From: an uncultured Elusimicrobiales bacterium
GTDB taxonomy: Bacteria; Elusimicrobiota; Elusimicrobia; Elusimicrobiales; Elusimicrobiaceae
Reading direction: 5' to 3'
Assembly (NCBI GenBank): GCA_944325055.1
Contig: CALUYP010000054.1
Coordinates: 1 to 36,477 of the forward strand
DNA length: 36,477 nt
The notes beneath the pieces are model-generated. The model was given only the letters and a program-made list of their open reading frames with translations. It searched no databases and was not told the DNA's origin. This document shows, in pieces, positions 34,221 to 36,476 of the stretch; the first letter of the stretch is position 1, and the number at the start of each line of letters is the position of its first letter. A program made the translations under genes and the position numbers.

Positions 34221-34718
34221 TTATTCGACATAACATGTTTGCCCACTGAGACAGGCAGAACTATCAACCGAAGCATTTCCCAAAATAGCTTTACATTTCG
34301 CTATACTGTCTTCCTCGTTATATATAACACTACATGTTCTACGTCCGTTACTTAGGTTTAGGAAAATATCATTTTTTTTACCCCATGCCCCTGCGGGGTC
34401 TTTTTGAGGCCGCAAATCAAATCCTTGAAGAATAAAATTATAATCTCCCAACGAAAAAGCATTCCTCGTAGCCGGATTCCCGTTTTCATCCACAAAAGAT
34501 ACAGAGAGCTCCTCAAACGGATAAACCACATCTGTGGTGCCCCTCTCCAAGTTAGCTAATTGTTCTGCTGTATTTATAGCTCTAATAAGCTGATAAGCAT
34601 TAGCAGCACGAGACTTTATTACTGCTTTTTGGTATTGAGGCAACGCTACACTAGCTAAAATACCAATAATCAAAACTACTACCAATAACTCTATTAACGT
34701 AAAACCCTTGTTCCTCAT
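34221..34718 (-). CDS. Type IV pilin-like protein (prepilin leader MRNKGFTLIELL)
   Basis: A 165-residue prepilin with leader MRNKG, mature N-terminus FTLIELLVVVLIIGILASVALP, then PQYQKAVIKSRAANAYQLI, as in the cluster at 9.5-11.1 kb. The C-terminal part has cysteines in RRTCSVIY, AKCKAIL, SACLSGQTC. ATG 34718 follows AAGGAG by 6 bases; an in-frame start 19 codons earlier lies inside the promoter. It is a lone gene in an AT-rich surrounding, separated by 23 kb from its paralogues. It may be an alternative pilin subunit. Confidence 0.86.
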   Translation of the reverse strand: MRNKGFTLIELLVVVLIIGILASVALPQYQKAVIKSRAANAYQLIRAINTAEQLANLERGTTDVVYPFEELSVSFVDENGNPATRNAFSLGDYNFILQGFDLRPQKDPAGAWGKKNDIFLNLSNGRRTCSVIYNEEDSIAKCKAILGNASVDSSACLSGQTCYVE

Positions 34719-34746
34719 AAGTGCTCCTTTTTCATAATATTTATTT

Positions 34747-34775
34747 TGTATAGAAATTTTATTCTGTAATTTCAA
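34747..34775 (-). promoter_or_regulatory. Promoter of the single pilin gene
   Basis: On the minus strand TTGAAA (-35), 17 bp, TATACA (-10), with a leader of about 20 nt and AAGGAG before the ATG at 34718. It parallels the consensus promoter of the three-pilin cluster. Confidence 0.6.
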
Positions 34776-35027: not shown

Positions 35028-35072
35028 TTGACAATTTTTTCTAAAATTTATAGAACAAAATATAGAACAAAA
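35028..35072 (+). promoter_or_regulatory. lexA-like promoter with 12-bp tandem repeat operator
   Basis: A perfect -35 TTGACA (35028-35033) is followed at 15-17 bp by two exact head-to-tail copies of TATAGAACAAAA (35049-35060 and 35061-35072). The repeat contains both the -10-like TATAGA and GAAC, a half-site common in LexA operators, spaced 12 bp apart (about one helix turn). Binding there would block the gene's own promoter. Confidence 0.6.
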
Positions 35073-35092
35073 TAAAAGTTATAGGAGCCTTT

Positions 35093-35701
35093 ATGAAAGC
35101 CCTACATCCCAAACAAGCTGAATTGTTAGAAATTTTGAAAACGCATATTTCAGATCCGCTGACTATGGAAGAATTGGCGGACCGATTAAATATAAGTGCA
35201 AAAAGCGTAGTGTTTCATCATATTAAACAACTGGAAAAAAAGGGATATCTCAAGCGAAATCCAGCCAATCCGCGGGATTATATTATCCTAAAAGATCCGG
35301 AGCGAAACGTGATTTATTTAAAGATGTATGGTATGGCAAAATGCGGCCCGGAAGGAACGATTTTAGATGGGACGCCTACACGCATTGTACCGGTAGATCC
35401 CAGTATGATTTATTTTCCAGCCTGCAAAGGGTTTATGGTGGAAGCCAAAGGCGACTCTATGCAGCATTTGATCGCGCCGCACGACTGGTTGATTGTGGAA
35501 CAAAACCATAATCCAAAAAATAAAGACGTCGTCGTTTGCGTCAACAATGGAGAAGTGCTGGTAAAGCGTTTCACGCAAGACGGAGAAAATGTAATCTTAC
35601 AATCTGAAAACCCGGAATATAACCCCATTATTGCCGATAAAGATTCTTTTCATGTGGAAGGAATTGTGCGCAGTATTATTAAGCGCAGCGTAAGCTGCTG
35701 A
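35093..35701 (+). CDS. lexA: LexA-like self-cleaving repressor (S24 peptidase)
   Basis: 202 residues, the size of LexA. The N-terminal winged helix (about 1-70) has the helix-turn-helix TMEELADRLNISAKSVVFHHIKQLEKKGYL. The C-terminal S24 domain contains the Ser122/Lys158 dyad (AKGDSMQ, EVLVKRF). The self-cleavage bond aligned with Ala84-Gly85 of E. coli LexA is Cys84-Gly85 here (MAKCGPEG), the pair used by UmuD. In the SOS response RecA filaments trigger this cleavage and free target promoters. The tandem operator in its own promoter suggests autoregulation. It could instead be a phage-type or special-purpose repressor, as no other SOS gene is in the window. Confidence 0.85.
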   Translation: MKALHPKQAELLEILKTHISDPLTMEELADRLNISAKSVVFHHIKQLEKKGYLKRNPANPRDYIILKDPERNVIYLKMYGMAKCGPEGTILDGTPTRIVPVDPSMIYFPACKGFMVEAKGDSMQHLIAPHDWLIVEQNHNPKNKDVVVCVNNGEVLVKRFTQDGENVILQSENPEYNPIIADKDSFHVEGIVRSIIKRSVSC

Positions 35702-35713
35702 TTTTTCTGCCGT

Positions 35714-35779
35714 CCCAGGCGGTCGAAACCTGGGGCAATGAGTCGTAACCTCACCGGGGCCGCTTATCTAGCGGCCCCG
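35714..35779 (+). terminator. Structured 3' region and terminator of lexA
   Basis: Two main hairpins: CCCAGG/CCTGGG with a 9-nt loop (35714-35734), then CGGGGCCGC/GCGGCCCCG with a 7-nt loop (35755-35779) followed by AATATTTATT. The second is the likely terminator. A small TGAG/CTCA stem between them is possible. Confidence 0.6.
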
Positions 35780-36014: not shown

Positions 36015-36476
36015 TCATTTGCGTCCCCTTCCATCTAAGGGGTTCGTGTCAAACGCAAGCAAACTCCCCGCCTCATCTGCCTTTAACTGCTCCTTTATAT
36101 ATTCTTCTATCCGCTTTTTATTCTTCCCTACCGTATCTACATAATACCCTCTGCACCACAACTCCCGGTTCCTAAACTTATACTTCACATTTCCCCACTT
36201 CTCATATATCATTAGACTGCTCTTGCCTTTTAAGTATCCCATGAAGCTTGATACGCTATATTTCGGAGGTATGGATACCAGCATGTGGATATGATCAGGG
36301 CATAGTTCGGCTTCTTCTATACGGCTTTCCTTCCATTCGCATGACTGCCTCAATATCTTGCCTACTTCTACTTTCTTCTCTTTATAAAAGAATCTTCTGC
36401 GGTACTTCGGGGCAAACACTATGTGATATTTGCAATTCCACTGCGTATGTGATAGTTTATTTATGTCATTGGTCAT
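36015..36476 (-). CDS. tnpA: IS200-type transposase TnpA (Y1 HUH)
   Basis: 153 residues, the standard length. The HUH metal site is CPDHIHMLVSIP and the nucleophilic tyrosine is in YYVDTVGKNKKRIEEYI, within the Y1 helix. WNCKYHIVFAPKYRRR is the typical N-terminal strand. It cuts and joins single-stranded DNA at the IS ends by a 5'-phosphotyrosine. The gene appears intact. The start ATG is at 36476, one base before the window edge, so its ribosome site cannot be seen and a few upstream codons are possible. Confidence 0.92.
   Translation of the reverse strand: MTNDINKLSHTQWNCKYHIVFAPKYRRRFFYKEKKVEVGKILRQSCEWKESRIEEAELCPDHIHMLVSIPPKYSVSSFMGYLKGKSSLMIYEKWGNVKYKFRNRELWCRGYYVDTVGKNKKRIEEYIKEQLKADEAGSLLAFDTNPLDGRGRK

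What the first reader, a model, noticed from the sequence alone, without database searches (positions are those of the whole stretch)
35028..35701. LexA-like repressor with a Cys-Gly cleavage site and an unusual tandem direct-repeat operator
The predicted scissile bond is Cys84-Gly85 rather than the Ala-Gly of most LexA proteins; UmuD uses Cys-Gly. The promoter has two exact head-to-tail copies of TATAGAACAAAA over the -10 region. Known LexA sites are mostly palindromic (CTG-N10-CAG, GAAC-N4-GTTC); direct repeats are known from Alphaproteobacteria (GTTC-N7-GTTC), but with a different unit. This may be a new lineage-specific SOS operator.
Basis: partly seen in the sequence, partly recalled or inferred. 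Interest (0 to 1): 0.58.

Follow-up and report, generated by a model that had tools for sequence, protein, structure and literature searches.

The report
A bacterial SOS repressor's direct-repeat switch
A DNA-damage repressor (LexA) of gut Elusimicrobia seems to sit on two same-facing copies of TAGAAC in front of its own gene, a switch kept in nearly every relative that has the repressor, and in two relatives also in front of recA.

Summary
Observation confirmed. Window 35093-35701 encodes a 202-aa LexA-type repressor (winged helix plus S24 peptidase) with Cys84-Gly85, Ser122 and Lys158; two exact copies of TATAGAACAAAA lie at 35049-35072. The host is an Elusimicrobiaceae MAG. The repeat is no accident: GAAC-N8-GAAC, with a varying spacer, precedes 66 of 67 full-length lexA orthologues in 90 family genomes (the other is GAAT-N8-GAAC). 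In the window's genus 60 of 60 genomes with full-length lexA have the site as best motif hit, and 0 of 6 without it. In two other genera the same repeat stands before recA, as an SOS operator should. In the window's genus recA lies 10-26 bp behind a clpB-like gene with no site, and no convincing site except lexA's was found: the regulon looks cut back to self-regulation. Read on the other strand the box is GTTC-N8-GTTC, one base longer than the alphaproteobacterial GTTC-N7-GTTC; the half-site is not new. Cys-Gly marks the same clade (18 of 18 sampled, one branch, 100/100); other sampled Elusimicrobiota LexAs are mostly Ala-Gly (28 of 29). New variant of a known kind; no binding or cleavage data.

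The parts
35028..35033 (+). TTGACA, likely -35 element of the lexA promoter (-10 not certain; the operator overlaps the place where it should lie)
   Evidence: read by eye; TTGACA/TTTACA/TTGC-like sequence at this distance in most of 52 aligned promoters
35049..35056 (+). first operator half-site TATAGAAC (core TAGAAC 35051-35056)
   Evidence: T, A, G, A, A of the core invariant and C in 51 of 52 lexA promoters
35061..35068 (+). second operator half-site TATAGAAC, 12 bp downstream (GAAC-N8-GAAC; GTTC-N8-GTTC on the other strand)
   Evidence: all eight columns invariant in 52 lexA promoters
35083..35087 (+). AGGAG, likely ribosome-binding site
   Evidence: read by eye
35093..35701 (+). lexA: LexA-type autocleaving repressor, 202 aa; Cys84-Gly85 scissile bond, Ser122/Lys158 dyad
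35755..35779 (+). GC-rich inverted repeat CGGGGCCGCT-TATCT-AGCGGCCCCG behind lexA, probable terminator
   Evidence: read by eye, not tested

Best explanation
The gene is a true lexA of Elusimicrobiaceae. A LexA dimer is inferred to bind the two TAGAAC half-sites in the same orientation, 12 bp apart, across the lexA promoter, and so represses its own gene. On DNA damage RecA filaments would trigger self-cleavage between Cys84 and Gly85 by Ser122/Lys158, freeing the promoter. Shown here: domains, catalytic residues, conservation of the repeat, its presence or absence together with the gene, and its presence before recA in two relatives. Inferred: binding, repression, cleavage. In the window's genus the circuit seems reduced to self-regulation.
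For: LexA_DNA_bind plus Peptidase_S24; LexA is the best structure match by sequence and fold. Ser and Lys columns are S and K in 47 of 47 LexA rows. Repeat upstream of 52 of 52 lexA genes (51 loci plus window), half-sites invariant while spacer bases vary. 67 full-length orthologues in 90 family genomes; 64 have a site within one mismatch 20-59 bp upstream on the same strand, the other three a more diverged GAAC-N8-GAAC (G079 and G080; G086). Genus: sequence model R1 finds the lexA site in 60 of 66 genomes and nothing in the 6 without full-length lexA. Of 20 pattern sites not at lexA in 90 genomes, 17 lie in ORFs (16 looked at; one, G048, judged by a 19-mer identical to inspected ones), three are intergenic, and two of these three are directly before recA (G067, G080). 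The place relative to the promoter differs (over -10, just upstream of -35, next to the start codon; by eye) while the 12-bp period stays.
Against: No binding, induction or cleavage experiment exists here. TIGR00498 score 110.4 is just under its cut-off 110.95. In the window's own genome only lexA has the box, so 'SOS' rests on relatives: a GAAC-N7/8-GAAC box was found at 2 of 57 recA loci whose start was found and at 0 of 22 dinB-type genes. The genome is 90% complete, so targets may be missing.
Confidence: 0.87

Rival explanations
1. The repeat is a promoter element (doubled -10 region) or a recent tandem duplication and not a repressor site.
For: In the window it lies where the -10 should be, and TATAGA resembles a -10 hexamer.
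Against: The half-sites are invariant while the spacer varies, against a recent duplication; the box sits at different places relative to the promoter in g2/g5 (e.g. just upstream of a -35 in G079 and G080; by eye); it is absent where lexA is absent.
Confidence: 0.04
2. The box is an operator, but of another regulator that controls lexA and, in some relatives, recA.
For: There is no direct binding evidence for LexA in this family.
Against: Presence follows the lexA gene: 60 of 60 against 0 of 6 genomes in the genus; GAAC/GTTC is a LexA half-site in Gram-positives and Alphaproteobacteria (PMC3323433 passage).
Confidence: 0.05
3. Compatible with the main reading but a different history: this LexA descends from a transfer from an alphaproteobacterium-like donor with a GTTC-N7-GTTC operator that then gained one base.
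For: Same half-site and same direct orientation; such transfer is reported for Acidobacterium capsulatum (recalled; only the start of that title was seen, in the reference list of PMC7739468).
Against: Spacing differs in the window and orthologues. Within the sampled Elusimicrobiota the clade is one branch, but no alphaproteobacterial LexA was put in the tree, so this is open.
Confidence: 0.1

Closest known systems
Alphaproteobacterial LexA box GTTC-N7-GTTC
   Same: Same GTTC/GAAC half-site in direct (same-facing) orientation (PMC8565304 and PMC3323433 passages).
   Different: Spacing is N8 (12-bp period) in all 67 orthologues (66 exact GAAC-N8-GAAC, one GAAT-N8-GAAC); the conserved half-site is longer, TAGAAC; the repressor has Cys-Gly.
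Balneolaeota LexA direct repeat TTACACATATTTTWTACATA
   Same: Another independently arisen direct-repeat LexA box in a little-studied phylum, found by comparative genomics (PMC7739468 passages).
   Different: Other half-site; there lexA, recA, polymerases IV and V and more are in the regulon, and EMSAs were done.
Gram-positive LexA box GAAC-N4-GTTC
   Same: Same half-site (PMC3323433 passage).
   Different: Palindrome, not a direct repeat.
UmuD
   Same: Cys-Gly scissile bond (PMC8565304 passage) and S24 fold.
   Different: UmuD has no DNA-binding domain (recalled); this protein has a LexA winged helix.

Membership tests
LexA repressor (S24) | N-terminal LexA winged helix | tested here: met
   PF01726 43 bits against cut-off 23.7
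LexA repressor (S24) | C-terminal S24 peptidase with Ser-Lys dyad | tested here: met
   PF00717 76.7 bits; Ser122 and Lys158 columns S and K in 47 of 47 rows
LexA repressor (S24) | Ala-Gly or Cys-Gly bond before the peptidase domain | tested here: met
   Cys84-Gly85; 18 of 18 rows of this clade CG
LexA repressor (S24) | NCBIfam TIGR00498 equivalog cut-off | tested here: not met
   110.4 against 110.95 bits; a near miss, and several orthologues pass it. A score cut-off, not a biological feature; I file the protein as LexA on the others.
LexA repressor (S24) | conserved operator before its own gene | tested here: met
   (sequence only)
LexA repressor (S24) | controls other SOS genes, recA at least | tested here: inconclusive
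   not seen in the window's genome; by sequence yes in G067 and G080
LexA repressor (S24) | RecA-stimulated self-cleavage | not testable with these tools
   needs protein; a recA gene is present
Alphaproteobacterial GTTC-N7-GTTC box | seven-base spacer | tested here: not met
   N8 in the window and orthologues
Gram-positive GAAC-N4-GTTC box | palindrome | tested here: not met
   two same-facing GAAC
UmuD | lacks the DNA-binding domain | tested here: not met

The most novel reading that the evidence does not exclude
In a whole genus (60 of 66 genomes) LexA guards only its own promoter: the SOS regulon has shrunk to a self-regulating, damage-cleaved repressor, after the recA operator was lost and recA became tied to a clpB-like gene, with the same direct-repeat box kept for recA in sister genera.
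Probability: 0.35. Interest if true: 0.65.

Novelty: new variant of a known kind. Interest (0 to 1): 0.5.

Why it matters
I found no description of a LexA box for Elusimicrobiota in the papers searched (listings; open-access PMC only). Direct-repeat LexA boxes have arisen several times; here the change can be set beside a sampled phylum in which LexA is otherwise mostly Ala-Gly and often has a palindromic site. The nearly self-only regulon raises a testable question: what is LexA for when it controls little but itself?

Tried and rejected
Secondary places: 16 of the 20 non-lexA pattern sites and all 11 weak R1 matches (9; G024:C39 and G004:C34) lie in ORFs. In the window's genome C6:5913 (exact TATAGAACAAAA) lies in a release-factor-like ORF (identified by eye); C11:4974 (2 mismatches) is intergenic beside an infC-like gene and not convincing; C31 and C23 matches lie in ORFs.

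Scripts replaced: searches (recA; dinB) looked at one strand only; others (57 of 59 recA loci found, G070 and G089 not; 22 of 22) replace them. A labelling slip (f11-f18 marked as direct repeat) was corrected; the tree is the same. In the palindrome test most single promoters are not significant, so only the shared TACA-N2-TGTA count is used; there L278, L279, L291 and L310 were left out and L290 was read from a wrong start. The same four were left out of the tree (paralogue, or wrong ORF chosen): 47 rows, 29 of them outside the clade.

The AlphaFold model (pTM 0.63, the five models ranging from mean pLDDT 84.9 to 47.0) is good enough to recognise LexA but not to claim the geometry of the cleavage loop or of the dimer.

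Full report
Observation. The window lies in a 1,324,648-base, 81-contig genome, 90% complete. Its closest lexA loci come from Elusimicrobiales/Elusimicrobium MAGs, many from rumen or gut by their record titles. ORF 35093-35701 encodes 202 aa with PF01726 LexA_DNA_bind and PF00717 Peptidase_S24 above cut-off and a TIGR00498 score of 110.4, just under the cut-off of 110.95. Cys84-Gly85, Ser122 and Lys158 are where LexA needs them. LexA is the top hit among solved structures by sequence and by fold. The two TATAGAACAAAA copies are at 35049-35060 and 35061-35072.

Conservation. 51 related loci were fetched. In all 51, and in the window, TAGAA[C/T]-N6-TAGAAC precedes the gene. In the 24-column alignment 13 columns are invariant, all of them in the two half-sites; three of the four spacer columns vary freely, the first is A in 51 of 52, and the bases behind the second copy vary. 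One sequence (L039) has GAAT in the first copy. So the conserved thing is TAGAAC twice, 12 bp apart, not the AAAA. This set overlaps with the genomes used next and is not independent of them.

Presence with the gene. Of 90 family genomes, 67 hold a full-length orthologue of 63-100% identity. 64 of 67 have ATAGAAC-N4-TATAGAAC within one mismatch 20-59 bp upstream on the same strand. The other three have GAAC-N8-GAAC in more diverged form: G079 and G080 and G086. Thus 66 of 67 have exact GAAC-N8-GAAC and one (G017) GAAT-N8-GAAC. In the window's genus 60 of 66 genomes have full-length lexA; a sequence model of the box (R1) has its best match at lexA in all 60 and none at E <= 0.1 in the other six, of which one (G035) has lexA cut by a contig end and two (G005, G050) only a distant S24 protein of about 30% identity.

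recA. Beyond lexA, 20 pattern sites were found in the 90 genomes. 17 lie in ORFs (16 inspected; G048 judged by a 19-mer identical to inspected ones). Three are intergenic. Two of these three are directly upstream of recA: ATAGAACAAAAGATAGAAC between a clpB-like gene and recA in G067, and TTAGAACAAAATATAGAAC upstream of recA in G080. By a rough hand estimate (20 sites, about 126 Mb of genomes, 200 bp per recA) about 0.003 such coincidences are expected. Against the SOS reading: only 2 of 57 recA loci whose start was found have a GAAC-N7/8-GAAC box, and none of 31 in the window's genus, where recA follows a clpB-like gene by 10-26 bp in 31 of 31 ('clpB' is my reading of the C-terminal sequence, not a family search). 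The IMS polymerase family is found in 22 of 90 family genomes and not in the window's, and no box lies within 300 bp upstream in 22 of 22.

Regulon of the window's genome. Beyond lexA, pattern and model searches give only weak matches; those opened lie in ORFs or look unconvincing. All 11 further R1 matches at E <= 0.1 in the genus lie in ORFs. Weak or degenerate targets cannot be excluded, since the genome is incomplete, the model comes from lexA sites only, and one search used stricter filters.

Evolution. LexA loci from other families of the phylum were found with TIGR00498 and 40 were fetched. In a 47-row tree the 18 rows with direct repeat and Cys-Gly (window, nine genus members, G067, six g5 genomes, and G145 of another family of the order) are one side of a branch with 100/100 support. 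Of the other 29, 28 have Ala-Gly and one Leu-Gly. G145 has ATAGAACATAGATTAGAAC. Two Cys-Gly S24 proteins of f2 g10 (L278, L279) without the repeat were left out of the tree, so Cys-Gly alone is not tied to the repeat. In the 29 others, TACA-N2-TGTA within one mismatch is found upstream in 12 (2.24 expected from shuffles), which suggests a palindromic site elsewhere in the phylum, but not shown for all.

How it works. Shown: gene, residues, conserved box, its presence and absence with lexA, its reuse at recA. Inferred: a LexA dimer binds with both winged helices facing the same way, as is reported for Alphaproteobacteria; repression by covering the promoter; RecA-driven cleavage at Cys84-Gly85. 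The place of the box against the promoter changes between genera (by eye: over the -10/start in the window and G088, just upstream of the -35 in G079 and G080), while the 12-bp period does not, which speaks for a protein site and not a promoter element.

Known or new. Read on the other strand the box is GTTC-N8-GTTC. The known alphaproteobacterial box is GTTC-N7-GTTC (passages of PMC8565304 and PMC3323433); a further direct repeat was found in Balneolaeota (passages of PMC7739468). Cys-Gly is known from UmuD (passage of PMC8565304) and is named with Ala-Gly for this protein family in a passage of PMC10020695. So this is a new variant of a known kind. I saw no paper on LexA boxes in Elusimicrobiota (search listings). 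The Verrucomicrobia LexA paper was not held, and the Patescibacteria and Acidobacterium papers were seen only as references, so a published GAAC-N8-GAAC box there is not excluded.

Noticed in passing
L442:6672-6689 (G076:C39) and L438:1496-1513 (G088:C1): Two related prophage-like regions carry TAGAAC-N6-TAGAAC, a third TAGAAC 18-19 bp on and an inverted GTTCTA further on, between early genes, some 5-6 kb from an HTH+S24 repressor-like gene ('prophage-like' by eye): possible phage use of the host LexA box.
   Followed up: partly
L284, L287, L289, L293, L295, L296, L297, L300, L304, L307, L309, L311: LexA genes of other Elusimicrobiota families often have a palindrome TACA-N2-TGTA upstream (12 of 29, 2.24 expected), perhaps an older LexA box of the phylum.
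   Followed up: partly
genomes G071-G088 (genus g5): Only 6 of 18 g5 genomes have a full-length lexA orthologue, some lacking it at 96-99% completeness: lexA seems to be lost repeatedly.
   Followed up: no
L281 (G145) upstream of lexA: Besides the direct repeat there is GAACAAGTCAATATGTTC (GAAC-N10-GTTC), a possible inverted third half-site.
   Followed up: no
window 34221-34775 (-) and many lexA loci: Pilin-like ORFs (GFTLIELLVVVLIIG) lie next to lexA in the window (by eye) and near it in many relatives.
   Followed up: no
window 36015-36476 (-): A 153-aa ORF runs to the window end; by eye it looks like an IS200-type transposase, not tested.
   Followed up: no
G003, G004, G005, G017, G020, G023, G037, G050, G054, G065: Second, distant S24 proteins (28-31% identity to this LexA, mostly 211-aa frames) occur in several genus members.
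   Followed up: no
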